From Clostridia bacterium (GTDB lineage: Bacteria; Bacillota; Clostridia; Christensenellales; Aristaeellaceae), in assembly GCA_017427165.1 (NCBI GenBank), contig JAFRTK010000147.1, forward strand, positions 1-35,715: 35,715 nt of DNA, read 5' to 3'. A program made the position numbers and the translations under genes. This document shows, piece after piece, positions 11,106 through 31,662 of the stretch. The notes beneath the pieces were generated by a model. The model saw nothing but the letters and a program-made list of their open reading frames with translations. It was not told where the DNA came from and ran no database searches. Each line of letters opens with the position of its first letter. Position 1 is the stretch's first letter.

Positions 11106-11136
11106 GCCGGGAGGCGGCTTCGCAGCGCCTCCCGGC
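11106..11136 (-). other. Strong intercistronic hairpin
   Basis: Perfect 11-base arms (GCCGGGAGGCG at 11106-11116 and its complement at 11126-11136) lie between the GH3 and beta-helix genes. On the minus strand no T-run follows, so it is not a standard terminator for these genes; it may limit read-through or protect the 3' end of the upstream message. Confidence 0.55.
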
Positions 11137-11155
11137 CGGATGGTTTTTCTTTTGA

Positions 11156-13890: not shown

Positions 13891-13926
13891 GCATACAAAT
13901 AGAAACGAGTATTTGGAGGTGCTTTG

Positions 13927-15396
13927 ATGTACCGGGTCCTGATCGTGGATGATGAGCTTCCGGCACAGCGCTTTGTGCGCAGTATTATTGAGCAGTTTTC
14001 CGCCACCTTCCAGGTGGCGGGCACGGCCTCCAGCGGCGAGCAGGCCCTGGAGTTCCTGCAGCTGGAAACCGTGGACCTGCTGGTTACCGATATCAGCATG
14101 CACGGCATGAACGGCATCGAGCTGGCCAAGTCTGCCCGTGCGCTCCAGCCCAATATCCGTATCGTGATCATCAGTGGCTACGGGGAGTTCGAATACGCGC
14201 AGGGCGCCATCGAGGCGGGAGTGGATGAATACCTGCTCAAGCCGGTCAGCATCAGCAAGATGTCCGCCATCCTGCAGTCGATTGAGAAAAAGCTGACATC
14301 CCAGAATACCGATATTGAGGCTTCCCTCCTTCCGGCGATTGCCTGCGGTCAGCCCTACTCCGCGGAAACAGCCGCCCAGATGTACAGCCGCCGGCGCTTC
14401 CGCTTTGCGATGATCCGCTGGGGCAACCAGGATATGACGCTTCCCCGGGTGCTGAGTGCCTCCTCTCTGGTGCTGCCGAAGCAGGAGCGCTTCCAGGTCC
14501 TGCGCGGGCGGGATGACGATGAACAGATCCTCATCGCCCCGGAAGGCCCGGTGGAGGAATTCCTTACCGACCTGAGCGTATACATGACCCGCAAGGGCCC
14601 GTTGAGCACCTGGACCGCGGTATATACTCCGGCGGAGCGGGAAATTGAGTTCCTGCCGGCATTCATCGAGTGGTCCCTCACCCTGCTGTACCGGAAAACC
14701 GTCATCGGCCGTCACCAGATCATCCAGTTTACCGGCGGTGCCATGCCGAAGGAGCATATGCGCCTTCCCGCCTCCGAGATGAACCAATATACATATTTCA
14801 TTACATCCGCCAAATACCGCATGATCAAGGATTACTTTATGTCCCTGGCATCCTCCTGGGAGAAGGATCAGCTTCCCCAACGCGAGGTGTGGCACCTTGG
14901 CCGCCAGCTGATTCACCATGCCTCCGCCGTCAGCCCGTCCATCGGTGCCCGGCAGGAGGATCTGCTCACCGGGTTCAACGACCTGATCCGCAGCGCCTCC
15001 TCCACCGGTGACCTGATGGCTTCCGCCTATTCCATGCTGTTTGACGGCGGCAGCATGTCGGACCGCAAGCTCTCCCCGCGGGAGCTGTACGACTACGCGG
15101 CCCAGTACATCAGGGACAATTACGCCCAGCCGCTGAGCATGCAGAGCGTCTGCGATGAGATCGGCATCTCCCAGACATACCTGAGCCGGCTCTTCCGCAA
15201 GTACAGCGACACCACCTTCAACGCCTGGCTCACCCGCTGCCGTATGGAAGCGGCCAAGAAGCTGCTCACCGAAAAGCCGGACCTGCTGCTGCGCGACGTG
15301 GCAGCCTGCGTCGGCTATGAGGATTCCAGCTATTTCACCAAGGTGTTCCACCAGTACACCGGCCAGACCCCTTCCCAGTTCACCTCAGACAATTAA
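13927..15396 (+). CDS. YesN-type response regulator, AraC-family DNA binding
   Basis: This 489-residue protein has an N-terminal receiver domain: acidic pair in VLIVDDE, phosphorylation site D55 in VTDIS, switch serine S83 and K105 in LLKP. A middle linker domain of about 250 residues, as in YesN-like regulators, follows. An AraC-type double helix-turn-helix fills about residues 385-489 (IGISQTYLSRLFRKYS and VAACVGYEDSSYFTKVFHQ). The ATG at 13927 is 6 bases after GGAGGT; a TTG just before it is only 3 bases away and less likely. Such regulators usually sit beside a YesM-type sensor kinase and control sugar uptake and glycosidase genes. Here no kinase adjoins; the best partner in the window is encoded at 31913-33724, 16.5 kb away, on the other side of the transport operon. 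Confidence 0.9.
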   Translation: MYRVLIVDDELPAQRFVRSIIEQFSATFQVAGTASSGEQALEFLQLETVDLLVTDISMHGMNGIELAKSARALQPNIRIVIISGYGEFEYAQGAIEAGVDEYLLKPVSISKMSAILQSIEKKLTSQNTDIEASLLPAIACGQPYSAETAAQMYSRRRFRFAMIRWGNQDMTLPRVLSASSLVLPKQERFQVLRGRDDDEQILIAPEGPVEEFLTDLSVYMTRKGPLSTWTAVYTPAEREIEFLPAFIEWSLTLLYRKTVIGRHQIIQFTGGAMPKEHMRLPASEMNQYTYFITSAKYRMIKDYFMSLASSWEKDQLPQREVWHLGRQLIHHASAVSPSIGARQEDLLTGFNDLIRSASSTGDLMASAYSMLFDGGSMSDRKLSPRELYDYAAQYIRDNYAQPLSMQSVCDEIGISQTYLSRLFRKYSDTTFNAWLTRCRMEAAKKLLTEKPDLLLRDVAACVGYEDSSYFTKVFHQYTGQTPSQFTSDN

Positions 15397-15460: not shown

Positions 15461-15501
15461 AAAAAAGCGTCACCGTGAACATTCACGGTGATGCTTTTTT
15501 T
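15461..15501. terminator. Bidirectional terminator between converging genes
   Basis: GCGTCACCGTGAA (15467-15479) pairs with TTCACGGTGATGC (15482-15494) over 13 positions with one G-T pair. Six A precede and seven T follow, so it can end transcription of both the response regulator gene (plus) and the adenylating enzyme gene (minus) that converge here. Confidence 0.9.
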
Positions 15502-15516: not shown

Positions 15517-17022
15517 TCATTTCATCATCTGCTTCAGGGTATTCCGGTCCACCTTCATGGACGGTGTATGCGGCATCTCGTCCAGGTGCACATATCTGTC
15601 CGGTAGCATGTACCGCACCAGGCTTTCCTTCAGCCCGGCCCGAAGCTGCTTCTCATCCGGTGCGCCCGACCAGAAGCACCAGATTTTGTCGTTCTCCCGG
15701 TCAAACAGCACGCAGCCTTCCTCCCAGCCTTCCAGGCCGCGCAGCGCGGCTTCCACCTCGCCCAGCTCCATGCGGTAACCCATATGCTTGATCTGGTTGT
15801 CCCGGCGGCCCAGCACCATCAGCTGGCCATCCTCCTGCAGGTAACCCACGTCGCCGCTGCGGAAAAAACGTTCCTGCCAGCCGCGTTCCAGCGGGTCCAC
15901 CACCCAGGAAGCCATCGTCCGCTCCGGATCCCGGTGGTATCCCCACGCGATCCAGGGACTGGAAAGCAGCATCTCACCCGGCTCGCCGGGCTTTGCCTCG
16001 TTCCCGTCCTCATCCAGGAAAAGGATATGCGCCAGCCGGAACGGCCGGCCCACCGGCAGGCGGCTGCCCGCGTCATGCTCATGCGATACCTTGCCCACCG
16101 CCACGGAGAACATCTCCGTGCTGCCGTAGTAGTGCCACCAGTCGGCATTCGGCGTCGCGTCCATCCACACCTTCAGCGGCGGCCACGGCATGGATTCGCC
16201 GCTCATGATGCCCCACTTCATTTCCGGCAGGCACCCGGGTTCCAGCACACCCGCGTTCACGATGCTGATGAAGCTGCTCGGCGTCATGCACAGGCAGGTC
16301 ACATGCTGCTCCTTCAGGCAGGCAAGCATCTTCTTCGGGAATCCCAGCACGCCCGCGGGCAGCAGGTACACCGTCGCCCCCAGGGATACCGGGGAAATCA
16401 CGTCCAGCACGGAGTTCGCGTAGAAGAACGGCGACTGGTTTCCGAACACCATGTCCTCCGTAAAGCCATACACCTCATTCGTGGCATCCGTCCAGTTCAC
16501 ATAGCTGAAATGCGTCTGGATGGACCCCTTCGGGATTCCTGTGGACCCGGAGGTGTACAGCACGGACATCGGATCATACACACTGGCCTGGCGGCGGATC
16601 GCCGCCAGCTTTTCGGTGTCGTTCTCCGCAGATTCCGCATTCGCGTACTGCACCAGCGGTACGTCCATTCCGAGGGCTGCATATGCCTTTGCGCCCTTTT
16701 CATCCGCCAGCACTGCCGAAGGCTGCAGCAGGTCCAGCAGCAGCTTCAGCCGTTCCGCAGGCATCGCGATATCCATGGGTGCGTAGGCGCACCCGGCATA
16801 CAGCGTACCGTACATGGCGGATACGTTGCGGATGCTGCGGCTTTCCAGCAGCAGTGCCACCGGTGTGCGCAGCGGCGCCGTAGCCGCCAGGCAGGAGCCG
16901 ATCCGCTGCGCCTTTTCCGTCAGCTGCGCGTAGGTCAGGCTTTCCCGGTCATCGTAAAAGGAAACCTTATCCGGCAGCCGCCGGGTGGTTTCTTCCAGGA
17001 ATTCCAGCATACTGGCTTTCAT
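15517..17022 (-). CDS. DltA-like adenylating enzyme 2, altered substrate pocket
   Basis: This 501-residue AMP-binding enzyme is of the DltA type, which activates a carboxylic acid with ATP and loads it on a carrier protein. Visible motifs are LYTSGSTGIPKG (155-166), YYGSTE, the hinge GRRDNQIKHMGYRMELGE and a late catalytic lysine in MKVDR. In the pocket, FFYANSVLD (199-207) carries alanine at position 202, where the sister enzyme encoded at 19671-21161 and typical DltA proteins have an aspartate that holds the amino group of alanine. It may therefore activate something other than D-alanine, perhaps an acid with no alpha-amino group. It is the last gene of the Dlt-like set, 18 bases after the DltD-like gene, with an AAGGAG site 8 bases from the ATG. 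Confidence 0.85.
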   Translation of the reverse strand: MKASMLEFLEETTRRLPDKVSFYDDRESLTYAQLTEKAQRIGSCLAATAPLRTPVALLLESRSIRNVSAMYGTLYAGCAYAPMDIAMPAERLKLLLDLLQPSAVLADEKGAKAYAALGMDVPLVQYANAESAENDTEKLAAIRRQASVYDPMSVLYTSGSTGIPKGSIQTHFSYVNWTDATNEVYGFTEDMVFGNQSPFFYANSVLDVISPVSLGATVYLLPAGVLGFPKKMLACLKEQHVTCLCMTPSSFISIVNAGVLEPGCLPEMKWGIMSGESMPWPPLKVWMDATPNADWWHYYGSTEMFSVAVGKVSHEHDAGSRLPVGRPFRLAHILFLDEDGNEAKPGEPGEMLLSSPWIAWGYHRDPERTMASWVVDPLERGWQERFFRSGDVGYLQEDGQLMVLGRRDNQIKHMGYRMELGEVEAALRGLEGWEEGCVLFDRENDKIWCFWSGAPDEKQLRAGLKESLVRYMLPDRYVHLDEMPHTPSMKVDRNTLKQMMK

Positions 17023-17039
17023 GTTATTCTCTCCTTCGG

Positions 17040-18227
17040 TCAGGCGTCAGCCGGTTCCTCCGGCAGTTCCGGCCACATCTCCTCCGGCGGTTCCGGATAG
17101 AATTCTTCCGGTATGAAGTCTTCCGGCAGTTTTCCCGGCGGTGGCGGGAACCAGTCCAGCGGCTGTTTTTCCACACTGGCAGACGCAAAGTCCGCGTACT
17201 TCTCCGCCCAGATCCCGGCGCATATATCGTAGGAGGCGTAGTAGTCGTCTCCCCGGCGGTCCGGCAGGTCGAACAGTTCCTTCAGGTCTTCCCCGAGCTT
17301 CCGGGTAAAGGTGATGCTCCCCTTCACGTTCAGGTGCTGCCAGTCGGCAAAGTCGGTGGAGAATCGCAGGCCGAACCGCATCTTCGGATCGTTGTAGTTG
17401 ATTCCGGTGATCCCGTATTCCGCCGCGATCGCCCACAGCGAGTTGTAGTACATATGGTCATTTGCGTAGTCGGGGTTCGGGAAGCCCACCAGCATAATCG
17501 TGATTCCCTCGTCCCTGGCCATTTCAAAGATCTTCCGGGCGTATTCCTCTTCCCGGTCATTGATATTGCGCTTCACGGTATTCCACACCACGGACGGCCG
17601 GTCGTGGTGTTCCGTAACGTCACTTTCGATGTACCCTTTCCAGGTCTCCCCGCGCCCCCCGTTGTCCGGCGGAAACGTGAAGTCCTCCGCGGTCAGCTTC
17701 TTGTAGTTGCTGTGCACCTCCGGCAGGCCCAGGATGTAGCTCACAGCGTCCTGCGGTTTTTCCACGCAGGCCATGATCGCACCGATCCGGTTCCCGATCC
17801 CCCGGATGCCGAAGGTGGACAGGATCGTCCGCCCGCGCTTGGAATAATCCCGTGTATACGTTGCCGCCTTGGCGTCCAGCAGGATGATCTTCGGATGTTG
17901 CGTCTTCAGCGCTTCCTTAATCGTGTAGTAGCTTACCCAGAACGGCTGCTCCGCGCTGCACAGGTTGTAGGAGGCGATTCCGAATTCCTCCCACAGCACG
18001 TTCGTATTCACGCCGGCGTAAGCCAGCGAGGAGCCCACCGTCAGCACGTCCACGCTGTCGTCCGGCTGGCGGTACAGGTTCATCATGGAACAGATGCCGT
18101 AGTCATGCTTGGGCGTCAGCACAAAGTTGGCGTACACCAGCAGGAGGACGGCGATCACGGCAAAGCAAACAAGCCGGACCAGGAATCCCGCCCGTTTCTT
18201 TCCGCTCACCGCTCCGTTCTCCTTCAT
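17040..18227 (-). CDS. DltD-like SGNH-fold membrane protein
   Basis: This 395-residue protein has one N-terminal membrane segment (residues about 15-35) and then an outward-facing domain. DVLTVGSSLAYAG (60-72) supplies a GxS-type serine (S66 or S67), and DWQHLN supplies the Asp-x-x-His pair (D295, H298) of an SGNH catalytic site. The order and length fit DltD, which helps MBOAT enzymes pass acyl groups to teichoic acid or its carrier. The C-terminus is rich in proline, glutamate and glutamine-free PPEEMWPELPEEP runs, probably a flexible tail. It lies 14 bases after the MBOAT gene. Sequence identity to true DltD looks low, so SGNH-type acyltransferase or esterase are alternatives. Confidence 0.75.
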   Translation of the reverse strand: MKENGAVSGKKRAGFLVRLVCFAVIAVLLLVYANFVLTPKHDYGICSMMNLYRQPDDSVDVLTVGSSLAYAGVNTNVLWEEFGIASYNLCSAEQPFWVSYYTIKEALKTQHPKIILLDAKAATYTRDYSKRGRTILSTFGIRGIGNRIGAIMACVEKPQDAVSYILGLPEVHSNYKKLTAEDFTFPPDNGGRGETWKGYIESDVTEHHDRPSVVWNTVKRNINDREEEYARKIFEMARDEGITIMLVGFPNPDYANDHMYYNSLWAIAAEYGITGINYNDPKMRFGLRFSTDFADWQHLNVKGSITFTRKLGEDLKELFDLPDRRGDDYYASYDICAGIWAEKYADFASASVEKQPLDWFPPPPGKLPEDFIPEEFYPEPPEEMWPELPEEPADA

Positions 18228-18241
18228 TGCCTGTTCCCCCG

Positions 18242-19690
18242 TTAGAACTGCGTATACAGGAACGCCGCCCCGTCATAGCCCGAACCGTAGACGCCGAACA
18301 CCACGATCACCAGGATCAGGGCCAGCAGCACCGGCCACCGGATCCAGAAATGCGTTTTCGCGAGCCCGCCGCACACGTCGATCTTCTTCTCGCATAAAAT
18401 GTCCACAACCAGCACAATCACGCATCCCGCCGCGGCGATGATCCACTCGGTCAGTTCCATCACGCCGGTCATCTGTTCCGCGAAGCCCGCAAAGCTCCAC
18501 GGCTGCACCGTCTGCGCCATCAGGCTGAGCCCCTGCCCGGGGCCGGCCGTAAACGCGAAATACTGCGCGATCAGGGTCAGGATCCACGTCCGCACCAGCC
18601 GGAAGGGTTTCATCCACCCGTCCTTCGGCAGGTTCAGCGTATTCCGCATGCTCTTCCACACCGGATCCAGCAGCATGCTCGCCGCCATCACGATACCGAA
18701 ATACGTGCCGAACACCACCGCGTTCCAGTTGGCGGTATGCCAGATGCCGATCAGCAGGAACACCAGCATCGTCGCCAGCGCGCTGGGCACCATGCGCCCC
18801 GTCTTCTTGCCGAACGCCTTCGACGCCGCCTTCCCCAGCCCGATGCCCGCCTTCGAGGTCGTCAGCGGGTACAGCAGGTAGGAGCGGAACCACGCGCCCA
18901 GCGTGATGTGCCAGCGCCGCCAGTACTCGGCCACGCTCTGGCTGAAGAACGGCCGGCGGAAGTTCTCCGGCAGTTCAATTCCCGCCATGCGGGAGAAGCC
19001 GCGCACCACGTCCATGCCGCCCGAGAAATCCAGGTACAGCCGGATGGCGTACAGGATCACGCCGCCCAGCACAAACCAGCCCGGCAGGTCCCCGCCCTTC
19101 AGCAGCGCGGTCGTCACGGACGCCAGTCGGTCCGCGATCACCAGCTTTTTGAAATAGCCCCACAGCAACTGCTGGAAACCGGATACGAAACTGTCCGGAT
19201 CGAGCCGGTGCCCGGTCCGCAGCTGCGGCCCCAGCTCCTTCCAGGTGGAAATCGGCCCCTGGGCCAGCTGGGGGAAGTACCCGATGAACAGCCACGCCTC
19301 CAGCGGGTTTTTCCGCGCCTCCGCCTTGCCGCGGTATACGTCAATCAGGTATCCAGCGCTCTGGAACGTGAAGTAGCTCAGTCTCAGCGGCAGGATCAGG
19401 TCCGCCCCGGAAAACGCGGGATAATACTTCAGGAAAACCATGGCGCCCAGGTCGAGCACCAGCAGGAATGCCAGCAGCAGGCGGCTTTTCTTTTTCTGCA
19501 GCAGCAGGCCGCCGCCCCACATCACCAGGGCAACGGCCGTCAGGTGCGCCGCGCTGTACCAGCCGGAAAGGCATACAAAAACCGCGCTGGCGCACACCAG
19601 CACCAGCCAGCGGACCTTCAGCGGCATCAGGTAGTACAGCAGCAGCGTACATGCCGCGAAGGCCAGGAATTCAACGGTCAGTATGCTCAA
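18242..19690 (-). CDS. MBOAT O-acyltransferase, DltB/AlgI type
   Basis: This 482-residue membrane protein has about 11 hydrophobic segments. MBOAT hallmarks are present: RLYLDFSGGMDV (217-228), EYWRRWHITLGAWFRSYL (255-272, H261) and LIGIWHTANW (313-322, H318), the two histidines that line the catalytic tunnel. DltB moves acyl groups across the membrane from the carrier protein. It starts at a TTG codon (19690) inside the end of the previous gene, with GGGAGG 6 bases upstream, giving a 20-base overlap and likely translational coupling. The order carrier, adenylating enzyme, MBOAT, SGNH protein matches the Dlt logic, though the acyl group and acceptor are not known. Confidence 0.9.
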   Translation of the reverse strand: MSILTVEFLAFAACTLLLYYLMPLKVRWLVLVCASAVFVCLSGWYSAAHLTAVALVMWGGGLLLQKKKSRLLLAFLLVLDLGAMVFLKYYPAFSGADLILPLRLSYFTFQSAGYLIDVYRGKAEARKNPLEAWLFIGYFPQLAQGPISTWKELGPQLRTGHRLDPDSFVSGFQQLLWGYFKKLVIADRLASVTTALLKGGDLPGWFVLGGVILYAIRLYLDFSGGMDVVRGFSRMAGIELPENFRRPFFSQSVAEYWRRWHITLGAWFRSYLLYPLTTSKAGIGLGKAASKAFGKKTGRMVPSALATMLVFLLIGIWHTANWNAVVFGTYFGIVMAASMLLDPVWKSMRNTLNLPKDGWMKPFRLVRTWILTLIAQYFAFTAGPGQGLSLMAQTVQPWSFAGFAEQMTGVMELTEWIIAAAGCVIVLVVDILCEKKIDVCGGLAKTHFWIRWPVLLALILVIVVFGVYGSGYDGAAFLYTQF

Positions 19691-21161
19691 GTTCCGCCTC
19701 CCGCTTCAGCGCCGCCCGGTCAATCTTTCCGCTGCCGGTCCGGGGCATGGTCTCCCGGCGCAGCAGGCTGTCCGGCAGCATATACTTGGGCAGCGCCGCC
19801 TTCAGCGCTTTCCGGATATCCTTTTCATCCGCGGTCCCCGTAAAGGCCGCGATAATCTTCTCGTTCGGGGCGTCATACCAGCAGCACGCCAGCTCCACGC
19901 CGTCCGCCGCGCTCAGCGCGCACTCGACCTCGCCCAGCTCGATGCGGTAGCCGCTGCGCTTGATCTGGCTGTCCCGCCGGCCCAGGAACATCAGCTCCCC
20001 GCGGTCGTTGTACTCGCCCAGGTCGCCGGTTTTGTAGATCGTTTCCCGGATCTGCGGCCGCAACGGGTTCTGCACGAACGCGGCGGCGGTCTTCTCCGGC
20101 GCGTTGTAGTAGCCTGGCGACAGGCACGTTCCGCCCACGCAGATCTCCCCGTCGATCAGCTCGATCCGTGTATTGGTGCACGGGAAGCCGATCGGCAGGC
20201 TGTCCGTATCGGCGAAATCCCGGTCCACCCGGTACCAGGCGCATACGTCCGTAATCTCCGTCGGCCCGTACATGTTCACATAGTCCGCGTCCGGCAGCGC
20301 CTGCTTCCAGCGGTTCAGCGTGGCGCACGGCATCGTCTCGCCGCAGAAGAACACCCGCTTCACGCCCGGCAGCGATCCGGGGGCCAGAACGCCGGCGTTC
20401 GCCAGCGCCGTCAGCGCGGACGGCACCCAGAACAGCGTATCGATCTTCTCGGCACTGATCCGTTCCGCGAGTTTTTTCGGGAACATGAAATCCCCGCGAG
20501 GAATCAGGTGCAGGCTGCCCCGCATCTTCATCGCGCAGTAGATGTCCAGCACGGAATTGTCAAAATAGAACGGCGCCTGGCTTCCGAACCGCACGCCCTC
20601 CGGCAGGCGCAGCGCGCCGCAGGCCCACTCGATAAAGTCCACCACGCTGCGGTGCATGATGGACACGCCTTTGGGCACGCCGGTGGACCCGCTCGTAAAC
20701 AGCACGTACAGCAGGTCCGTATCGATATGTCCCGCGCGGCGTTCCGCCAGCTTCCCCGCGTCTTCCCCGCCGGGGATCTCAGCGAAGCACGCCGTTTTCG
20801 CGTCCCCCGCGATCCGTTCCGCGGTGTCCCGGAACTTTTCCTCAAACAGGATCACCGACGGCTGCAGCGTTTCCGCGATCATCCGCATCCGCGCCTCCGG
20901 CATGGAGGAATCCAGCGGCGTGTAAAAGCACCCCGCGTACACCGCGCCGAACATCGCGCACAGGCAGTCCGGGCTCTTTTCCATCAGGATCAGCACCGGC
21001 TGCTGCGGCTTTGTAAGCGCGCAAAGAAAGGTCCCGGTTTCCCGGGCCCTTGTCCGCAGGGCGCCCCAGGTATAGCTTCCGCCCGGCCCGTCATAGGCCA
21101 TGGACTGCGGCGCGGCCTCCGCCGCCTCCTCCAGCCAGTCCAGTACGCTGCGCGTGCTCAT
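19671..21161 (-). CDS. DltA-like adenylating enzyme 1
   Basis: This 496-residue AMP-binding enzyme is of the DltA type. Motifs: LFTSGSTGVPKG (154-165), NMYGPTE, the hinge GRRDSQIKRSGYRIELGE and the catalytic lysine in SGKIDR. Residue D201 in FYFDNSVLD is the aspartate expected to bind the alpha-amino group of an amino acid such as D-alanine, so this enzyme keeps the normal pocket. Its ATG overlaps the stop codon of the carrier gene (ATGA), and its end overlaps the MBOAT gene, so these three genes are tightly coupled. It likely loads the carrier encoded at 21158-21394. D-alanine is the family default, not shown by the sequence alone. Confidence 0.85.
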   Translation of the reverse strand: MSTRSVLDWLEEAAEAAPQSMAYDGPGGSYTWGALRTRARETGTFLCALTKPQQPVLILMEKSPDCLCAMFGAVYAGCFYTPLDSSMPEARMRMIAETLQPSVILFEEKFRDTAERIAGDAKTACFAEIPGGEDAGKLAERRAGHIDTDLLYVLFTSGSTGVPKGVSIMHRSVVDFIEWACGALRLPEGVRFGSQAPFYFDNSVLDIYCAMKMRGSLHLIPRGDFMFPKKLAERISAEKIDTLFWVPSALTALANAGVLAPGSLPGVKRVFFCGETMPCATLNRWKQALPDADYVNMYGPTEITDVCAWYRVDRDFADTDSLPIGFPCTNTRIELIDGEICVGGTCLSPGYYNAPEKTAAAFVQNPLRPQIRETIYKTGDLGEYNDRGELMFLGRRDSQIKRSGYRIELGEVECALSAADGVELACCWYDAPNEKIIAAFTGTADEKDIRKALKAALPKYMLPDSLLRRETMPRTGSGKIDRAALKREAELEHTDR

Positions 21162-21394
21162 TTTCCCTGGTACCGGTGCACCAGCTCCAGCATGGACTGC
21201 ACGTTGTTGAAGTTTTCCGGCTCGATGTCGCCGGTGATGATGTGGATGTCAAAAGCCTCGTCCAGGGCGGCGATGATCTGGGTCAGGTCGAAGGAATCGA
21301 TCAGCCCGTCGTCCACCAGCGCGCCTTCATCGGCGAAGTCCACGTCGTCGCGGACCTCCGCCAGTGCCGCAAGCAGCTTTTCCATGTCGGTCAT
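21158..21394 (-). CDS. DltC-like acyl carrier protein
   Basis: This 78-residue acidic protein has the four-helix carrier shape and the phosphopantetheine site DSFD (S34 in GLIDSFDLTQI). It is the size of DltC. A G-rich site (GGGGGG) precedes the ATG. It is the only carrier protein in the window and is the first gene of the Dlt-like set, so both adenylating enzymes probably use it, although another carrier elsewhere cannot be excluded. Confidence 0.85.
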   Translation of the reverse strand: MTDMEKLLAALAEVRDDVDFADEGALVDDGLIDSFDLTQIIAALDEAFDIHIITGDIEPENFNNVQSMLELVHRYQGK

Positions 21395-21530: not shown

Positions 21531-22649
21531 TTATGCGTTGATACGTTTCTGGGTTTCCGGATCGAAAAGATGCAGCTTTTCCATGTTCGGTTTCAGCAGC
21601 ATTTCCGTCTCTGTGGGCGCTTTTTCTCCGGCGTACTTAAATACTACCACTTTTTCGCCGATCCGTACATACAGCAGGTACGCGTCACCCAGCGGCTCGA
21701 TGGAATCCAGCTTTGCCGGAATGGAATTCACGCCTTCCTGCGCGATTTCGAAGTCGGACGGCCGGATGCCCAGGTCCACCTTTTTGCCCGTATAGGGCGC
21801 CAGGGATGCCTTCACATGGTCCGGCGCTTTCAGCCGGAAGGTGCCCGCGTCCAGGATATATGCGCCGTTCTCTTCCTTCACGCTGCAGGGGAAGATGTTG
21901 ATCTGCGGGGTGCCCAGGAAGCCCGCCACGAACTCGTTGGCCGGATGGTCGTACAGGTCGTTCGGGGTGCCTTCCTGCATGATGTGGCCGCCGCTCAGCA
22001 GCACAATGTGGTCCGCCATGGTCATGGCTTCCGTCTGGTCATGCGTTACATAGATGGTGGTCACATTCAGTTCCTTCTGGATCTTCTTCAGCTCGTAGCG
22101 CACCTGGTCGCGCAGCTTGGCGTCCAGGTTGCCCAGCGGTTCGTCCAGCAGGAAGACCTGGGGGCTGCGCACCAGGGCGCGGCCCAGGGCCACACGCTGG
22201 CGCTGGCCGCCGGAAAGCTGGGCAATCCGCCGGTCCAGCAGGTCCGTCAGCTCCAGCTTGGCCGCCTGCTCATTCACCAGCCGGTCAATCTCATCCTTCG
22301 GCACCTTCTTGGTCTTCAGGGAAAAGCCCATGTTTTCCCGCACGGTCATGTTCGGGTACAGGGCGTATTCCTGGAACACCATGGCGATGTTGCGCTCCTG
22401 CGGCGGAACGAAGGTTTTCTTCTTGCCGCCCTCCGTTTCCGTCATCAGCTTGTCACCGAAGTAGATCTGGCCCGAGAAGGGCTCGAGGAGGCCGGCGATG
22501 GAATACATGGCCGTGGATTTGCCGCAGCCGGAGGGTCCCAGGAACACGCAGAACTCGCCGTCCTTGATATCCAGGTTCAGCTTGTCCAGTACGTAAGTCT
22601 TGCCCTTGTTGTAGCTTACGCACATATCCTTGATCGTAATCGAAGCCAT
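21531..22649 (-). CDS. MsmK/UgpC-type sugar ABC transporter ATPase
   Basis: This 372-residue ATPase powers sugar importers of the CUT1 class. It has Walker A GPSGCGKST (38-46), a Q-loop in VFQEYALYPN (91-100), signature LSGGQRQR (145-152), Walker B VFLLDEP (165-171) and the switch histidine in YVTHDQTEA. Residues from about 235 form the regulatory OB-type (TOBE) domain that marks the MalK/MsmK group, where regulators bind. It lies 5 bases after a GH3 gene, with GGGAGG at the end of that gene as its ribosome site. Energising both permeases upstream is the natural role. Such ATPases often serve several importers. Confidence 0.95.
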   Translation of the reverse strand: MASITIKDMCVSYNKGKTYVLDKLNLDIKDGEFCVFLGPSGCGKSTAMYSIAGLLEPFSGQIYFGDKLMTETEGGKKKTFVPPQERNIAMVFQEYALYPNMTVRENMGFSLKTKKVPKDEIDRLVNEQAAKLELTDLLDRRIAQLSGGQRQRVALGRALVRSPQVFLLDEPLGNLDAKLRDQVRYELKKIQKELNVTTIYVTHDQTEAMTMADHIVLLSGGHIMQEGTPNDLYDHPANEFVAGFLGTPQINIFPCSVKEENGAYILDAGTFRLKAPDHVKASLAPYTGKKVDLGIRPSDFEIAQEGVNSIPAKLDSIEPLGDAYLLYVRIGEKVVVFKYAGEKAPTETEMLLKPNMEKLHLFDPETQKRINA

Positions 22650-22654: not shown

Positions 22655-24628
22655 TTACCTCCCGAAGCCTTCAGCGTCGATACCAAAGCCGTATTCATAC
22701 AGCGGGTTTTCGATATCCTTGGGCATATCCTCCCGCTGCGCGAGCACTGATTCCATGGTGGCGGGAATCTGGAACGGCAGCCGGCCGGTGATCTCGGTCT
22801 CGCCGAAGAGGCAGTCCGCAACGGCCTCCGCGCCGCAGGTTACGCCGGGGCGGTATACCAGCAGCACGCTGTCCGCCGCTTCTGTAACCGGGGTCAGCAC
22901 GTAGGCGCGGTTCATCACCACGACGGCTGTCACATTGGCGCCTGCCTTGTCCAGCGCGTTGATCAGCTTCACCTGTTCCTCCGGGAATTCCAGGGTGGAG
23001 GCGCCCCACGCGGGATCATGGGTGCCGCTCTTCTCGCCCACCACGACCACGGCGGTCACACCGCTCAGGTCCGCGGGAACTTCCGCGGCATCGGCGATAT
23101 ACGTTACGTTTTCTTCACCGGCCTTGTTCTTCAGCTCCTGCAGGATGGTGGTACCTTTCAGTTCCACCGGCTCCTTGGCGGTCCAGCCGCTGCTCAGGCA
23201 GCGCAGGTCTTCCGCCAGCGTGCCGGCCACGATGAACTTCTGTCCTTCCAGGGATACGGCGTTCTCGTACTTCACCAGCGTGAAGGACTTCGCCGCGGCT
23301 TCCTTCGCGACCGCGCGGTGCGCTTCGCTGCCGATGATTTCCTCGGCCGCGTCTTCGTCCACATAGGGGTTCTCGAACAGGCCCATCTTAAACTTCAGCA
23401 CCAGGATCCGGCGGCAGGCTTCGGTGATTTTTTCCGCCGGCACCTCATCCACCACCTGCCGGGTGGAGCGTACGCCCGCGCCGCCCAGGATATCCGCGCC
23501 GGCATTTGCCGCGCCGGAGAAGTTCAGGCCCCAGTCGGTCTGGATGATGCCTTCATAGCCCAGCTGTCCGCGCAGCAGGTCGGTCATAACCACGGCGCTC
23601 TGGTCGGCGGAGTTGTCCACCGCGTCGCCGCCCAGGTACGGAACCGTGGAATAGCCGTACGGCATGACCGCGGCTGCCCCGGCTTCCATACCGGCTTTGA
23701 ATCCGGCCAGGTGGAGCTCCAGGGAGTCTTCGGAAATCGTCAGCGGGGTTCCGTCCACACCGCCCGTCTGGGCGCCGGCGCCGGGGAAGTGCTTCACAGT
23801 CGCGACCACGGAGTTTTCATCTATCCCGTTTTCGCCCTGCAGCGCCACAACTGCCGCCCTGATTAGGTTCTGCACCACTTCGGTGTCTTCGGAATAGCAT
23901 TCCTGGTTCCGGCCCCACCGGGGATCGGTGATCAGGTCGGCATCCGGGGACAGCGCCATGCGCACACCCACCGCCATCAGTTCTTCCTTCAGCACCCGGT
24001 TCAGTTCCGCCACCAGCTCCGCGTCATTCGCGGCGCCCTGGTTGATTTCATCCGGCAGGTAGGTTGCGTCCTTCACGAAGGCCGCGCCGGCTTCCGTGTC
24101 CATGGAGAAGATGACCGGGATGCCGAAGTCAGACTCTTCGCTCAGCTCCTGGATCTCATTGGTCAGGCGAGCCGCGTTCCGGGCGTTGGAGAGGGGGCCT
24201 TCAGGCTCCTTGTCCTCATCCTCATCTTCGTCCTCGTCCTCTTCGTCTTCCTCTTCATCCTCATCGGGTTCTTCCGTTTCGAAGATGTATTCATAGACCA
24301 GGGCAAACCCCACGTTGTTTTTGGTAAACCAGCTGTCCTTCATCGTTACCAGCGTCAGGTGCACCATCTGTGCCGCCTGCTGGTCGATGTCCATCTGGCT
24401 GATCAGGTCGTCCGCCCGCTCTTCGGGGGTCAGCCGCCAGTCCTCATAGGGATCCAGTTCGCAGTTGTCGTTCAGGTCCTTGAACTGGTATCCGTCCACC
24501 TCAATGATGTCCTTGACCCGGGCGACGAGCTCCGGCTGGACCGGCGCGTCCTCCGCCATGGCGGGCAGCACGCCCAGCACCAGCAGCGCGGCCAGGGCCA
24601 GGGAGGCAATCCGTTTGAATGTTTTCAT
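22655..24628 (-). CDS. Secreted GH3 glycosidase with acidic tract (paralogue 3)
   Basis: The start at 24628 is set by the AAAGGAG site 8 bases upstream and the signal peptide MKTFKRIASLALAALLVLG; a longer frame to 25078 would overlap the permease gene. The 657-residue product has an EF-hand-like loop D51-L-N-D-N-C-E-L-D-x-x-E62 and a typical GH3 site: DPRWGR (235-240), TVKHFPGAGAQ (K279, H280) and nucleophile D365 in IIQTDWGLNF. It ends in NPLYEYGFGID, as active GH3 enzymes of this length do. Residues 118-143 are a run of mostly Glu and Asp, which is odd for this family. It sits between the permease G and ATPase genes, so beta-glucosidase activity on imported or surface sugars is likely. Confidence 0.9.
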   Translation of the reverse strand: MKTFKRIASLALAALLVLGVLPAMAEDAPVQPELVARVKDIIEVDGYQFKDLNDNCELDPYEDWRLTPEERADDLISQMDIDQQAAQMVHLTLVTMKDSWFTKNNVGFALVYEYIFETEEPDEDEEEDEEDEDEDEDEDKEPEGPLSNARNAARLTNEIQELSEESDFGIPVIFSMDTEAGAAFVKDATYLPDEINQGAANDAELVAELNRVLKEELMAVGVRMALSPDADLITDPRWGRNQECYSEDTEVVQNLIRAAVVALQGENGIDENSVVATVKHFPGAGAQTGGVDGTPLTISEDSLELHLAGFKAGMEAGAAAVMPYGYSTVPYLGGDAVDNSADQSAVVMTDLLRGQLGYEGIIQTDWGLNFSGAANAGADILGGAGVRSTRQVVDEVPAEKITEACRRILVLKFKMGLFENPYVDEDAAEEIIGSEAHRAVAKEAAAKSFTLVKYENAVSLEGQKFIVAGTLAEDLRCLSSGWTAKEPVELKGTTILQELKNKAGEENVTYIADAAEVPADLSGVTAVVVVGEKSGTHDPAWGASTLEFPEEQVKLINALDKAGANVTAVVVMNRAYVLTPVTEAADSVLLVYRPGVTCGAEAVADCLFGETEITGRLPFQIPATMESVLAQREDMPKDIENPLYEYGFGIDAEGFGR

Positions 24629-24648: not shown

Positions 24649-25554
24649 TTACGACGCGGTGACCGCGCCGCTCATCTGGCCGCTGATCAGGTACTTGCCC
24701 ATGAAGATGTAGATGATCAGCATCGGCAGGGCCAGGATCATGGAACCGGCCATCAGCTGGTTGATTTCCACGCCCGTGGATCCCACAAAGCTGTTCAGCA
24801 CAATCGTGGCCAGCGGTGCCTGCGCGCCCTCGCCCTGGTTGGCCAGGACCAGCGCGAACAGCATCTCGTTCCAGATCGATGTGCACTGGAACACAAACGT
24901 GGTAATCGTGGCCAGCTTGGTGTTGGGTACCACGATCTTCCGGTAGATCTGCCACATGCCGTTGCCGTCGATCATGGCCTGGCGGATCAGTGCGTCCGGC
25001 ACCTCTGAGTAGTAGCCGCGCATCATGGTGGTGCACATCGGCATACCGAAGATCGAGTGGGCCAGCACAATACCCCATATGTTATCGTACAGGCCGTAGT
25101 TGGTAATGTTTTTCAGCAGGGGGATCAGGATCGCCTGGAAAGGCAGGTACGTGGCCGCGATCAGCGCGATGAAGAACACGTTGTTCAGCTTGAACCGCCA
25201 CTTGCCCAGCGCGTACGCGCAGATCGATCCCAGGAACACGGATCCGGCCGCGCCGAATATCGTGACCACCAGGCTGTTGAGCAGCGAGACCGCCAGCAGG
25301 TCCATGGCCCCGCTGTAGCCTTCCATGGAGAAGTTCTGCGGGAGCGCGATAGGCGACGTGCTGATCGCCTCGGCATTGCTCTTGAAGGAGGATACGAGCG
25401 CGCCCCAGAAGGGCAGCATGTAGAATACCAGGAAAAGGACCAGGATCAGGTAGTAGACAATATGCAGCACGGTCATATGCCACTTCGGCTTGACCTTCAG
25501 CGTTTGTGCTGCCTGCCCTGCCTTGCTGCGCTCGGCAATCATGTTGTCCTGCAT
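24649..25554 (-). CDS. Sugar ABC transporter permease, MalG type
   Basis: This 301-residue membrane protein has six membrane segments. The cytoplasmic EAA loop that contacts the ATPase is YSEVPDALIRQAMIDGNGMW (residues about 181-200), followed by IYRKIVVPNTK. Length and motif fit the second permease subunit of CUT1 importers. Its ATG is one base after the stop codon of the first permease gene, with AGGAGG within the end of that gene, so the two are translated together. It works with the 613-residue permease, the binding protein and the MsmK-type ATPase. Confidence 0.95.
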   Translation of the reverse strand: MQDNMIAERSKAGQAAQTLKVKPKWHMTVLHIVYYLILVLFLVFYMLPFWGALVSSFKSNAEAISTSPIALPQNFSMEGYSGAMDLLAVSLLNSLVVTIFGAAGSVFLGSICAYALGKWRFKLNNVFFIALIAATYLPFQAILIPLLKNITNYGLYDNIWGIVLAHSIFGMPMCTTMMRGYYSEVPDALIRQAMIDGNGMWQIYRKIVVPNTKLATITTFVFQCTSIWNEMLFALVLANQGEGAQAPLATIVLNSFVGSTGVEINQLMAGSMILALPMLIIYIFMGKYLISGQMSGAVTAS

Positions 25555-25555: not shown

Positions 25556-27397
25556 TTATCTCTTCCTCCTGTTCGTCAGATAAGTCAGCGGCAGAATCAG
25601 CACCAGCACCATCGCCAGCAGGAAGCAGCTGATGGCCGCGGCGTAGGCGTAGTTGTCATGCGCGTACATTTCGTTGTACATCATGATCGGCAGCGTCGCG
25701 GATGCCGGATTCGTGTAGCTGGTCAGGGAATAGATCAGGTCGAATGAACGCAGCGCGTACATGGCCAGGATCGTGATGCAGCTGCCCATGGCGCCCGTCA
25801 TCTGCGGCAGGATCATCTTCCGGTAGATGCGGGGCATGTAGGAGCCGTCCAGCTTGGCGGCGTTCACGATATTGGTCGGCACGTTCTTGATGGCCGCCAG
25901 GAAGATCACCGCCACATAGCCGGAGAACTGCCACACCATCACCAGCATGATCGAGAACATGACCATCTCGTTGCTGGTCCAGTTGATATTCAGGTTAATT
26001 CCCAGCAGCCGGAAGAATTCCACCAGGATACCGCCGTTGCCGTTGAACATCTGCTGCCAGATCAGGCCCGTCACCACGAAGGAAAGGGCGAAGGGCAGCA
26101 GGATCAGCGTCCGGAATACCGGGGTTCCTTTCAGGCCCTGGTCCATCACCAGCGCCAAGCCCAGGCCCAGCAGCAGGCAAACCGGGATGATCAGGAACAG
26201 CTTCAGCGTATTCCACACGGAATTCCAGAAGGAGCTGTCCGCAAACATCTTTGTGTACTGCCCGAAACCGCCCCAGCCGTAGGAGGCTGTCTGGCTGTGG
26301 TCCGGCCAGTCGGACACGGACACCCACACGTTCCAGCCGATGGCCACATACACAAAGTAGATCAGCAGGGCTGCGGGAATCAGCAGCCAGATCATCGGGT
26401 GCCGGTTCAGGAACGCCTTGATCCTGTCATGGAACACATAGATCAGCACAATCGCCGCTGCGACCGCCGCCGCGAAGATCAGCCAGATATACTGCGCGCT
26501 GAAATTCTTCCGGAATGCGGCCGCGCCTTCGGCGTTGGCCATCACCAGCTCGCCGCCGCGGTAGGCGTAGTGTCCGTTCTCCTGCGCGCTGCCGTCCGCC
26601 GCCGCAAAGGTATACGTACCGTCCGGATTGAACGTGATGGAGGTGGCTCCGTCCGTGCTTTCCGCTGTATAGGCTTCCTGCACGGCTTCGGCGCTTTCCT
26701 CAACGACGAACATTTCCTTGAGGCCCTTGATACCGTATTCCGCCTTGTACGCCTCGCCGGTGGCGGGACTCGTCACCGCGGAGGTGTACCGCAGCTTGGA
26801 GCTGGTTTTGCCCACCTTGGTCTCGCTGCCGTCCGTGTCGTTCACCAGCGTCAGCGCCTTGTCCGCATAGGTATATTTTCCGGTTTCCTCAGCACTGCCG
26901 TCGGCTGTGCTGAACCTGTAGGTTCCGTCCGGGTAGAAAGTGATTCCGGATGTTTCGTCCGATCCGGTCACCGTGAATTCCTCTGCTACATGGTCGGAGG
27001 TCTCGCGGGTGGTCAGCCGGCCCAGGATATCGCTGAAGGTATATGTCTGGGTGTAGGCCGCCCCGGTGGCGGGATCCTTCACGTCCGACACATACTCCAG
27101 GGTGTTTTCCGATTTCTTGGTCGTCTGCTCCCAGGCGTAAGCCGGGGTGCCTTCCGCCCGTTCCGATATCGGAACGTAGTTGCAGGAGTTGACCAGCACC
27201 AGTGCGAACACAGCCAGCAGCAGTGCCGGAACAGCCAGCAGGAACCATCCCTTTCTCTTCAGCTTGTTCCTGAGGTTTTCCGCGCAGAGATAGACCAGGA
27301 CAAGGAGCAGGACTGCCAGGATGATGCCCCAGAAGGCGCCCTTGCCCTCAAACGTCATCTTGTAGAAATTGTTCAGGAATAATTGGATCTTTCCCAT
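25556..27397 (-). CDS. Sugar ABC transporter permease, MalF type, with duplicated extracellular domain
   Basis: This 613-residue permease is about twice the length of a typical CUT1 permease. Its C-terminal part (about 335-613) is a normal six-segment core with the EAA loop NAAKLDGSYMPRIYRKMILP (512-531). Ahead of it are two membrane segments (about 21-38 and 50-70) joined by a basic loop, then a soluble part (about 71-300), then another membrane segment (about 304-322). The basic loops NLRNKLKRKG and HDRIKAFLNRH point inward, so the soluble part is outside. It consists of two repeats offset by exactly 102 residues: DPATGAAY/SPATGEAY and ITFYPDGTY/ITFNPDGTY. The arrangement recalls the extracellular loop of Escherichia coli MalF, which touches the binding protein, but the sequence is unrelated as far as I can see. 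Confidence 0.9.
   Translation of the reverse strand: MGKIQLFLNNFYKMTFEGKGAFWGIILAVLLLVLVYLCAENLRNKLKRKGWFLLAVPALLLAVFALVLVNSCNYVPISERAEGTPAYAWEQTTKKSENTLEYVSDVKDPATGAAYTQTYTFSDILGRLTTRETSDHVAEEFTVTGSDETSGITFYPDGTYRFSTADGSAEETGKYTYADKALTLVNDTDGSETKVGKTSSKLRYTSAVTSPATGEAYKAEYGIKGLKEMFVVEESAEAVQEAYTAESTDGATSITFNPDGTYTFAAADGSAQENGHYAYRGGELVMANAEGAAAFRKNFSAQYIWLIFAAAVAAAIVLIYVFHDRIKAFLNRHPMIWLLIPAALLIYFVYVAIGWNVWVSVSDWPDHSQTASYGWGGFGQYTKMFADSSFWNSVWNTLKLFLIIPVCLLLGLGLALVMDQGLKGTPVFRTLILLPFALSFVVTGLIWQQMFNGNGGILVEFFRLLGINLNINWTSNEMVMFSIMLVMVWQFSGYVAVIFLAAIKNVPTNIVNAAKLDGSYMPRIYRKMILPQMTGAMGSCITILAMYALRSFDLIYSLTSYTNPASATLPIMMYNEMYAHDNYAYAAAISCFLLAMVLVLILPLTYLTNRRKR
26489..27100 (-). repeat. Tandem 102-residue domain repeat within permease F
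   Basis: Residues about 100-201 and 202-303 of the permease line up without gaps. Anchors are P-A-T-G-x-A-Y at 109-115 and 211-217, ITF-x-PDGTY at 152-160 and 254-262, A-x-DGSA at 165-169 and 267-271 and G-x-Y-x-Y at 173-177 and 275-279. The pattern of short strands and glycine turns resembles small lipocalin-like beta domains; the fold is inferred. Confidence 0.75.
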
Positions 27398-30806: not shown

Positions 30807-30849
30807 GTTCCGGTCCCTCCCCTTCTCTTGTCCGTTCCAGCTTCCCAGG

Positions 30850-31662
30850 TTAATCCACAAAAGTCAGCGTGGCCCACAGGCTCGGATTGGTATCCACCGC
30901 ATGCATTTCCGGCTTGCGGTCCCGGCCGTCCAGTTCAGAGGAGTACTGCATCCGCAGGCTGTGGATGCCGGGGCACGGCAGGTCCACGTCCAGGATGGAG
31001 ACGTCGAATCCGATCGTCTTGCCGGCTTCGGGCGCCAGCTGCGGGATGTTCTTGTTGCTCAGGTTATGCAGCGGGATTTTGCTTTCCCAGACGATGCCGC
31101 CGTCAATGGAGGCGATGGCTGCCTCGTAGTCGTCAAAGACCACTTCATCGCCGTATTCACCCTGCGTGTCCCAGCCCTGGGTGTCAGCGATCATGTCGCG
31201 GTCGATGTAGTTGAAGAATTCATATTCTCCCTTGTAGCCGTACGCGCTCTGCACGATCCGCCAGTCGGTGGCGGTGTACTCGGTGCGGGCGGGATCCGCT
31301 TCCGGATCGGTGGAGAGGAAGAAGATCACGGCGTCCAGCTCATCCAGCGGGAAGCCTTCCCGGTAGACCAGGGGAGTGTCGTCCAGGATCTTCATGGCGA
31401 TGTAGAGGTTTTCCTCATCCCACATCACATACGTTTCCATGGAGCAGTCCGCCTCGCCGTCCCAGTGCTCAATCTGGTCGATGATCTGGTTCTGCGCGTT
31501 GATCTTCAGGGCCTTCGTTGTATCCCACTCGCCCAGGTCGCCGTCAATTACAACTTCCCCGGCCTTGGGGGCTTCCAGGTTTTTGTCGGAATATGCCAGC
31601 GCGGTGGTGGAAACGCCTGCCAGCAGGGCCAGCGTCATCAAGATGGCAATCACTTTCTTCAT
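30850..31662 (-). CDS. Secreted CBM9-like sugar-binding protein, first gene of the transport operon
   Basis: The start at 31662 is set by GGAGG 9 bases upstream and the signal peptide MKKVIAILMTLALLAG. The 270-residue product is one CBM9-like domain: VVIDGDLGEWD opens it, DEENLYIAMKI, a STDPEADPARTEY block and a closing VWESKIPLHNL follow. It is a paralogue of the protein encoded at 8743-9543. No anchor or catalytic domain is seen. As the first gene of the sugar-transport operon it may be made in large amounts and capture oligosaccharides near the surface for the binding protein. Confidence 0.75.
   Translation of the reverse strand: MKKVIAILMTLALLAGVSTTALAYSDKNLEAPKAGEVVIDGDLGEWDTTKALKINAQNQIIDQIEHWDGEADCSMETYVMWDEENLYIAMKILDDTPLVYREGFPLDELDAVIFFLSTDPEADPARTEYTATDWRIVQSAYGYKGEYEFFNYIDRDMIADTQGWDTQGEYGDEVVFDDYEAAIASIDGGIVWESKIPLHNLSNKNIPQLAPEAGKTIGFDVSILDVDLPCPGIHSLRMQYSSELDGRDRKPEMHAVDTNPSLWATLTFVD

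What the first reader, a model, noticed from the sequence alone, without database searches (positions are those of the whole stretch)
15517..21394. Dlt-like operon with two adenylating enzymes, one lacking the amino-anchoring aspartate
Classical Dlt operons have one DltA. Here enzyme 1 (19671-21161) keeps Asp201 in FYFDNSVLD, while enzyme 2 (15517-17022) has Ala202 at the same gap-free column (FFYANSVLD). In the NRPS/DltA group this aspartate binds the alpha-amino group. Enzyme 2 otherwise has complete motifs including its late lysine, so it looks active. It may load a hydroxy acid or another acid, giving an envelope polymer with two kinds of ester decoration.
Basis: partly seen in the sequence, partly recalled or inferred. 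Interest (0 to 1): 0.8.

Follow-up and report, generated by a model that had tools for sequence, protein, structure and literature searches.

The report
Two-ligase Dlt-like envelope acylation operon
A family of bacteria carries a gene set for attaching small acids to surface polymers that holds two loading enzymes instead of one, and the second has lost the parts that usually recognise amino acids, so it probably attaches a hydroxy acid or a similar amine-free acid.

Summary
Five tightly packed minus-strand genes encode a carrier (C), adenylating enzyme E1, an MBOAT (B), an SGNH-like protein (D) and adenylating enzyme E2. E1 has Asp201 where E2 has Ala202, in a gap-free stretch. It is fixed: Ala in 20 of 20 E2 rows, Asp in 17 of 17 E1 rows, and all 20 of 300 sampled family genomes with an E1 orthologue hold E2. 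Published alpha-hydroxy- or alpha-keto-acid-selecting domains change these same positions. Catalytic motifs remain and E2 is under purifying selection. E1 and E2 are sister clades from an old duplication. B carries the FxYxxF acyl-shuttle tail. In 10 of 20 fetched loci a sugar importer and GH3 genes stand in fixed order upstream. Best reading: E1 loads an amino acid and E2 an amine-free (likely alpha-hydroxy) acid onto one carrier for transfer to an envelope glycan. Substrates are untested, and E1 need not use D-alanine.

The parts
21158..21394 (-). C: carrier protein, 78 aa, phosphopantetheine Ser34 in DSF
   Evidence: NCBIfam DltC 2.7e-6, 27.3 bits, below cut-off 68; D-S-(L/F) in 17 of 17 rows listed, window included
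19671..21161 (-). E1: stand-alone adenylating enzyme with Asp201 (235), Cys at 301, Asp305 (330), Lys479; pocket code DNLFFCMDVK
   Evidence: TIGR01733 5.2e-94 and DltA model 3.1e-82, both below cut-offs; code positions
18242..19690 (-). B: MBOAT, DltB/AlgI-like, His318, C-terminal acyl-shuttle motif FLYTQF with Tyr479
   Evidence: Pfam MBOAT 3.8e-10; TIGR04091 DltB 148.3 bits, below cut-off 375; FxYxxF in 18 of 19 B rows, the exception being an N-terminal fragment; positions; His318 as the catalytic one is recalled from the family
17040..18227 (-). D: SGNH-like protein, one N-terminal membrane segment, Ser67 / Asp295 / His298
   Evidence: S67, D295, H298 invariant in 14 of 14 aligned (14 of the 17 D rows; L112, L118, L130 not aligned); weak Pfam matches, Lipase_GDSL_2 in 6 of 14 (best E 0.0045) and DUF1574 in 5 of 14 (best E 0.00039); window D itself has no Pfam match. 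Membrane segment read from the sequence
15517..17022 (-). E2: stand-alone adenylating enzyme with Ala202 (235), Ser301 in place of the A5 Pro, Ser306 (330), Lys490; pocket code ANLCISYSVK
   Evidence: TIGR01733 1.9e-81, DltA model 4e-64, both below cut-offs; 20 rows
15461..15500 (.). Terminator-like hairpin between E2 and the convergent response regulator, usable in both directions
21531..22649 (-). Sugar ABC importer ATPase (UgpC/MsmX type), upstream gene of the conserved locus
   Evidence: UgpC model 4e-120, 401 bits, below cut-off 432; same position in the syntenic loci
22655..24628 (-). GH3 family glycoside hydrolase with apparent signal peptide
   Evidence: Pfam GH3 N and C domains; synteny; signal peptide read from the sequence
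24649..25554 (-). Sugar ABC permease 2
   Evidence: Pfam BPD_transp_1; synteny
25556..27397 (-). Sugar ABC permease 1, with a long N-terminal extension
   Evidence: BPD_transp_1 at residues 409-604; synteny
27470..29449 (-). Second GH3 glycoside hydrolase
   Evidence: Pfam GH3 N and C domains; synteny
29439..30860 (-). Sugar-binding protein of the importer
   Evidence: Pfam SBP_bac_8 / SBP_bac_1; synteny
13924..15396 (+). Response regulator with AraC-type DNA-binding domain, convergent with E2
   Evidence: Pfam Response_reg and HTH_18; reversed on the E2 side in 8 of 20 fetched loci

Best explanation
E2 is an active stand-alone adenylating enzyme that activates a small carboxylic acid without an alpha-amino group, most likely an alpha-hydroxy acid, and loads it on the operon's single carrier C. 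E1 loads an amino acid on the same carrier. B takes either acyl group from C and puts it on Tyr479 of its own C-terminal FLYTQF tail. D takes it from that tyrosine onto Ser67 and passes it to a cell-envelope glycan, which therefore can carry two chemically different esters, one cationic and one neutral. Shown here: gene set, motifs, fixed pocket differences, co-inheritance of E1 and E2, purifying selection, common ancestry of E1 and E2. Inferred: the substrates, shared use of C, the B to D relay (by analogy with the Dlt and Pat systems) and the polymer. My sub-estimates: no amino acid substrate 0.8; alpha-hydroxy acid in particular about 0.5; loads C about 0.75.
For: Position 235 is Ala in 20 of 20 E2 and Asp in 17 of 17 E1. 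The A5 Pro is Ser in 20 of 20 E2 and Pro in 112 of 112 others (E1 17, DltA-like 3, other Dlt-like 92). Position 330 is Ser in 15, Thr in 1, Ala in 2, Gly in 1, Pro in 1 of 20 E2, and Asp in 17 of 17 E1. In the review PMC11253843 (passages; section 9 whole), TycA engineered for phenyllactate has Asp to A223 and Ile to C318 (GrsA 235 and 330 by the offset of 12 that also links its W227 to W239; the offset is my inference), the Cys being thought to hydrogen-bond the substrate; EnSyn has Gly at 235; the keto-acid domain StsA has Ile at 235 and Met in place of a conserved Pro, and changing that Pro in LgrA (P483) gave a small increase of keto-acid activation. LgrA P483 matches the A5 Pro in the numbering of chain 9be3_A (485 in 6mfy_A). 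No acid occurs in the ten pocket positions of E2; the three columns acidic in E2 but not E1 (residues 90, 338, 365) are not among them. Catalytic motifs are invariant. dN/dS of E2 between window and 8 orthologues is 0.12-0.32, like E1 0.09-0.27. All 20 genomes with an E1 orthologue (58% or more) hold E2, two of them as contig-edge fragments. E2 directly follows D in 15 of 20 fetched loci. The B tail is FxYxxF in 18 of 19 rows, the motif that PatA auto-acylates and DltX uses (PMC12148441, passages).
Against: No biochemical data. A microcystin domain (McyG) activates Phe although it has Val at 235 (PMC11253843), so Asp is not strictly needed for an amino acid; conversely the HcaB domain, predicted to take a keto acid, keeps Asp235 (PMC10949194, passages), so this position alone does not decide. 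Ser at the A5 position is, from my own knowledge, also usual in acyl-CoA synthetases, so the pair of changes does not single out hydroxy acids. Position 330 is not Ser/Thr in 4 of 20 E2. No hydroxy-acid-forming enzyme was found beside E2 among the neighbours that I annotated; the one metabolic dehydrogenase seen, of the Glu/Leu/Phe/Val family beside the solitary E2 of L126, would make keto acids. Solitary E2 copies exist away from the cassette (L125, L126), and L128 has E2 on the opposite strand. No structural model could be made.
Confidence: 0.5

Rival explanations
1. E2 activates an amine-free acid that is not an alpha-hydroxy acid: an alpha-keto acid, a short-chain fatty acid or an aromatic acid released from plant material by the neighbouring hydrolases.
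For: Loss of the amine-binding Asp and of the conserved Pro is what StsA (keto acid) shows (PMC11253843); the solitary E2 of L126 lies beside a Glu/Leu/Phe/Val-type dehydrogenase; fatty-acyl-CoA ligase models also score on E2, though equally on E1; half of the fetched loci lie beside GH3 and sugar-import genes.
Against: E2 scores best as an amino-acid adenylation domain; it is the sister of an Asp-bearing enzyme; Phe or Tyr at 322 in 20 of 20 suggests a small pocket, against bulky acids; no ketoreductase was seen among the annotated neighbours.
Confidence: 0.27
2. E2 still activates an amino acid, through backbone contacts, as McyG does with Val at the Asp position.
For: McyG precedent (PMC11253843); E2 scores best with amino-acid adenylation models; in DltA residues Gly295 and Val301 also coordinate the amine (PMC11253843).
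Against: Both the Asp and the A5 Pro are gone in 20 of 20 E2; no acid in the ten pocket positions; E1 already supplies an Asp-bearing enzyme in the same operon.
Confidence: 0.12
3. E2 is not a substrate-loading enzyme for this cassette: it is an acyl-CoA ligase or a partner protein that regulates or edits charging of C by E1.
For: Two solitary E2 copies (L125, L126) and one on the opposite strand (L128) show that E2 can live apart from the cassette; only one carrier gene is present in the operon.
Against: The genomes of L125 and L126 (G288, G198) also hold E1; E2 directly follows D in 15 of 20 fetched loci; the catalytic residues are kept and selection is purifying.
Confidence: 0.11

Closest known systems
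Dlt pathway (DltA, DltB, DltC, DltD, DltX) of teichoic acid D-alanylation
   Same: One carrier, an adenylating enzyme, an MBOAT, an SGNH protein and an FxYxxF acyl-shuttle tyrosine.
   Different: Two adenylating enzymes; C, E1, E2 and B stay below the curated Dlt cut-offs and D matches no model; the shuttle motif is on the MBOAT; E1 and E2 both have Asn where DltA has Leu198; the polymer is unknown.
PatAB, AlgI-type and related MBOAT-SGNH O-acyltransferases
   Same: MBOAT with its own C-terminal FxYxxF tail plus SGNH partner (PMC12148441, passages).
   Different: PatA takes acyl-CoA; here a carrier and two loading enzymes are encoded.
Other Dlt-like operons among L002-L080, mostly from Clostridia
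   Same: Where the full set is in the fetched piece, carrier, adenylating enzyme, MBOAT and SGNH-like protein lie side by side.
   Different: One adenylating enzyme per cassette (L051 has two, each with its own carrier); the A5 Pro is kept in 92 of 92 rows; the D-like protein has Cys in the nucleophile column of the consensus.
Alpha-hydroxy-acid adenylation domains (engineered TycA, EnSyn) and the alpha-keto-acid domain StsA
   Same: Small or aliphatic residue at 235; TycA has a hydrogen-bonding residue at 330; StsA lacks the A5 Pro.
   Different: Those are domains of large peptide synthetases, not stand-alone enzymes of an envelope acylation operon.
AlmE (glycine loading for lipopolysaccharide)
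   Same: DltA-like enzyme for envelope acylation with an amino acid (PMC11253843, passage).
   Different: Amino acid substrate, lipopolysaccharide target.

Membership tests
DltA, D-alanine--carrier ligase (TIGR01734) | Score over the curated cut-off 559.85 bits | tested here: not met
   E1 276.7, E2 217.0 bits
DltA, D-alanine--carrier ligase (TIGR01734) | Amine-binding Asp197 (235) | tested here: not met
   E2 Ala in 20 of 20; met by E1, Asp in 17 of 17
DltA, D-alanine--carrier ligase (TIGR01734) | Methyl-contacting Leu198 and Cys268/269 | tested here: not met
   Leu is Asn in 17 of 17 E1 and 20 of 20 E2; Cys kept in 17 of 17 E1, but Ser in 17, Cys in 2, Ile in 1 of 20 E2; DltA residues from PMC11253843 and the chain numbering
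DltA, D-alanine--carrier ligase (TIGR01734) | Activates D-alanine | not testable with these tools
   Needs an exchange assay
Amino-acid adenylation domain (TIGR01733) | Score over 317.4 bits | tested here: not met
   E1 315.4 (just below), E2 273.9
Amino-acid adenylation domain (TIGR01733) | Catalytic motifs A3, A5, A7, A8, A10 | tested here: met
   A3 Lys, A5 Glu, A7 Asp, A8 Arg and Gly, A10 Lys in 20 of 20 E2; motif names recalled
Non-amino-acid (hydroxy/keto) adenylation domain | Small aliphatic residue at 235 | tested here: met
   Ala in 20 of 20 E2
Non-amino-acid (hydroxy/keto) adenylation domain | A5 Pro replaced (StsA) | tested here: met
   Ser in 20 of 20 E2, Pro in 112 of 112 others
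Non-amino-acid (hydroxy/keto) adenylation domain | Activates a hydroxy or keto acid | not testable with these tools
   Needs an exchange assay
MBOAT-SGNH acyltransferase pair | MBOAT domain with FxYxxF tail | tested here: met
   Pfam MBOAT, FLYTQF, tail in 18 of 19 rows
MBOAT-SGNH acyltransferase pair | SGNH partner with Ser-Asp-His | tested here: inconclusive
   S67, D295, H298 invariant in 14 of 14 aligned, weak Pfam support in some members, none for window D; no SGNH structure found by profile
Dlt operon | DltX microprotein | not tested
   Not searched for by model; the shuttle motif sits on B instead

The most novel reading that the evidence does not exclude
A natural two-substrate envelope acylation machine: one carrier, one MBOAT and one SGNH transferase served by two duplicated and diverged adenylating enzymes, so that one glycan is decorated with an aminoacyl ester (positive charge) and a hydroxyacyl ester (neutral), with the ratio set by the two loading enzymes and expressed together with a sugar-uptake locus.
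Probability: 0.42. Interest if true: 0.78.

Novelty: new variant of a known kind. Interest (0 to 1): 0.62.

Why it matters
To my knowledge Dlt-type systems have been described as aminoacylation systems. A conserved sister pair of loading enzymes, one with and one without the amine-reading residues, would show that the pathway has been rewired to attach amine-free acids, and would give a natural stand-alone enzyme in which the switch from amino acid to hydroxy acid can be studied. It would make the surface chemistry of this lineage testable with two purified enzymes and one carrier. More widely, three groups of Dlt-like enzymes in this comparison lack the Asp (Ala, Ser, Ile/Val), so envelope acylation with something other than D-alanine may be more common than recognised.

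Tried and rejected
Sequencing or assembly error at codon 202: rejected, the Ala is fixed in 20 of 20 E2 rows. Decaying paralogue: rejected, dN/dS 0.12-0.32 against eight orthologues and invariant catalytic motifs; one decayed copy exists (L129, frame broken). Asp loss as a unique oddity: rejected, 17 of 112 other enzymes lack it too; what is unique in this comparison is the pair with the A5 Ser. Relocated acid in E2: looked for and not found in the pocket positions, whereas the Ser235 group has Asp at 330 in 11 of 11 and E1 has both Asp235 and Asp330. Spread beyond the family: an exact 27-base degenerate pattern for NQSPFFYAN found only the window's own genome among 398 genomes of the phylum and 4 of 396 of the order, the own genome included, all in the window's own family; no mismatch was allowed. 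Structure prediction: switched off, so no fold comparison. Profile search of D against solved structures gave only short matches to S-adenosylmethionine decarboxylases, best E 0.047, which I take as chance. Papers: the listings showed no report of a Dlt-like operon with two adenylating enzymes; the extra dltA_1 and dltA_2 of Staphylococcus shinii (PMC11161930, passages) code for proteins of 1442 and 3023 residues, by their size peptide synthetases (my inference). The library holds open-licence papers only. TycA P313 was not used as a match to the A5 position, because the review does not make its place clear.
Full report
What is there. On the minus strand, 21394 to 15517, five genes lie end to end: a 78-residue carrier C, the adenylating enzyme E1 (496 aa), an MBOAT B (482 aa), an SGNH-like protein D (395 aa) and the adenylating enzyme E2 (501 aa). 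C and E1 overlap by 4 nt, E1 and B overlap, and the next two gaps are 14 and 17 nt. A hairpin at 15461-15500 closes the unit and separates it from a convergent response regulator. Pfam and NCBIfam place E1 and E2 with AMP-binding / amino-acid adenylation enzymes and B with MBOAT / DltB, but C, E1, E2 and B stay below the curated Dlt cut-offs and D matches no model. The right word is Dlt-like.

E1 Asp201 and E2 Ala202 sit in one column of a stretch that has no gap from A3 through A5. The phmmer alignment of E2 to linear gramicidin synthetase A places Ala202 under the reference Asp as well. The ten pocket positions were mapped by motif onto GrsA numbering, the position list being given in PMC11253843 (passages); the DltA equivalents follow from the chain numbering (Asp197, Leu198, Gly295, Val301 of Bacillus cereus DltA).

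Is it fixed? E2 orthologues were found in 21 of 300 sampled genomes of the window's own family, the window's own included: 18 with complete hits of 43-100% identity and three as fragments (G156, G226, G101). Twenty loci from 18 genomes other than the window's were fetched. In an alignment of 132 enzymes (20 E2, 17 E1, 3 DltA-like, 92 other Dlt-like; two rows of L001, which is the record of L112, left out of the count, and three E2 fragments under 430 aa dropped before), position 235 is Ala in 20 of 20 E2 and Asp in 17 of 17 E1. E1 orthologues of 58% identity or more occur in 20 of the 300 genomes, and all 20 hold E2, in G156 and G226 as contig-edge fragments; G101 has an E2 fragment without such an E1. 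Six further genomes have E1-like enzymes of 41-46% and no E2 (G032, G195, G220, G240, G292, G294); I did not count these as orthologues, and the three whose pocket codes I read (G032, G240, G294 = L107, L101, L106) have other codes.

More than one change. E2 has lost the A5 proline: YGSTE in 20 of 20, against Pro in 112 of 112 of the other enzymes. The review names a proline as conserved in amino-acid domains and replaced by Met in the keto-acid domain StsA; its change in LgrA (P483) gave a small increase of keto-acid activation (PMC11253843). In the numbering of chain 9be3_A this is the A5 Pro. Position 330 is Ser in 15, Thr in 1, Ala in 2, Gly in 1 and Pro in 1 of 20 E2, while it is Asp in 17 of 17 E1. 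In TycA engineered for phenyllactate, the Asp of 235 became Ala and the Ile that corresponds to 330 became Cys, whose side chain is thought to hydrogen-bond the substrate (PMC11253843, section 9 read whole). E2 thus carries, naturally, the same Ala and, in 16 of 20, a like hydrogen-bonding residue. None of the ten pocket positions of E2 is acidic, and the only columns that are acidic in at least 90% of E2 and under 20% of E1 are residues 90, 338 and 365, not among them. Against: McyG takes Phe with Val at 235, and HcaB, predicted to take a keto acid, keeps Asp (PMC10949194, passages).

Is E2 alive? The A3 Lys, A5 Glu, A7 Asp, A8 Arg and Gly and A10 Lys are invariant in 20 of 20. A counting estimate (Nei-Gojobori type) gives dN/dS 0.12-0.32 for E2 between the window and eight orthologues, 0.09-0.27 for E1 with eight and 0.14-0.19 for B with three. 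One copy (L129) is broken; its pieces were not joined.

Where it came from. In a 93-row maximum-likelihood tree (17 E1, 20 E2, 31 minority-motif and 10 randomly kept majority-motif Dlt-like rows, 12 further family rows, 3 DltA-like; quick search), E1 and E2 are each one clade (SH-aLRT 100) and each other's nearest group (91); next come 12 rows, eleven with Ser235 and Asp330 and one (L035) with Asp235 (84). So E2 most likely arose by an old duplication in this lineage. An exact motif scan found E2 only in the window's own genome among 398 genomes of the phylum and in 4 of 396 of the order, all in the same family; the pattern allowed no mismatch, so more distant forms could be missed.

The larger locus. 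In 10 of the 20 fetched loci, and in the window, the full order is sugar-binding protein, GH3, permease, permease, GH3, ATPase, C, E1, B, D, E2 (L111, L112, L114, L115, L116, L119, L122, L123, L127, L129; in L127 the carrier is seen only, in L122 E2 is double, and in L129 E2 is broken). L117, L118, L121 and L130 are cut by contig ends; L124 has an extra GH3-like gene before C and its sugar-binding protein was not in the fetched piece. L113 (no D found), L120 and L128 (E2 on the other strand) show no importer homologue beside the cassette in the fetched piece; L125 and L126 have E2 alone. A response regulator stands reversed on the E2 side in 8 of 20. Uptake and hydrolysis of a glycoside and acylation of a surface glycan may therefore be co-expressed, though no expression data exist.

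How it would work. C is charged by E1 (amino acid) or E2 (amine-free acid). B, whose tail ends in F-x-Y-x-x-F in 18 of 19 rows (the exception is an N-terminal fragment), would move the acyl group to its tail tyrosine, as PatA and, through DltX, DltB do (PMC12148441, passages). D, with Ser67, Asp295 and His298 invariant in 14 of 14 aligned (14 of the 17 found), would transfer it to the polymer. That E2 loads an amine-free acid is an inference from residues; the shared carrier is inferred from the single carrier gene; the relay is by analogy; the polymer is unknown. D has only weak Pfam support as an SGNH protein and no solved relative was found.

E1. E1 should not be called a D-alanine ligase. 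Its code DNLFFCMDVK is invariant in 17 of 17 apart from position 299; it keeps the Asp and the DltA Cys, but has Asn for Leu198 and Asp for Val301. Two acids in the pocket could suit an amino acid with a second amine; this is a guess.

Novelty. The listings showed no two-ligase Dlt-like operon; the library holds open-licence papers only. I rate it a new variant of a known kind.

Noticed in passing
L004, L049, L055, L056, L057, L060, L064, L067, L068, L071, L073 (adenylating enzymes of Dlt-like operons): Eleven enzymes have Ser at 235 and, in 11 of 11, Asp at 330, as if the amine-binding acid had moved across the pocket or the substrate carries its amine elsewhere.
   Followed up: partly
L074, L077, L079, L080, L102, L108: Six further stand-alone Dlt-like enzymes have Ile or Val at 235, keep the A5 Pro and have His or Gln at 322: a third group without the Asp, substrate unknown.
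   Followed up: no
L051:8362-18982: Another locus with two adenylating enzymes, each followed by its own carrier, and one MBOAT; both enzymes have Asp235 and differing codes DVKIMSLCNK and DMRMCSFGSK.
   Followed up: no
D-like proteins of other Dlt-like operons, alignment A4 (18 rows from L003-L072): The consensus at the SGNH nucleophile column reads GDCE, a Cys where the two-enzyme clade has Ser in 14 of 14 aligned.
   Followed up: no
window 19671-21161: E1 has Asn for DltA Leu198 and an extra Asp at the Val301 position in 17 of 17 rows, so its amino acid may not be D-alanine.
   Followed up: partly
L122:13348-16658: One genome has two E2 genes in tandem after D, with differing pocket codes (ANTCVSFGVK and ANITISFSVK).
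   Followed up: no
L129:12460-13982 and L113:9607-14323: G219 has two cassettes: in one E2 is frame-broken, in the other E1 carries an in-frame stop, B is split in two frames and D was not found.
   Followed up: no
window 25556-27397: The first permease has several hundred residues before its usual permease domain (residues 409-604); homologues stand at the same place in the syntenic loci.
   Followed up: no
window 176-2482: A CotH kinase-like protein lies at the window's edge; GH3 and beta-helix proteins follow at 6152-13672.
   Followed up: no
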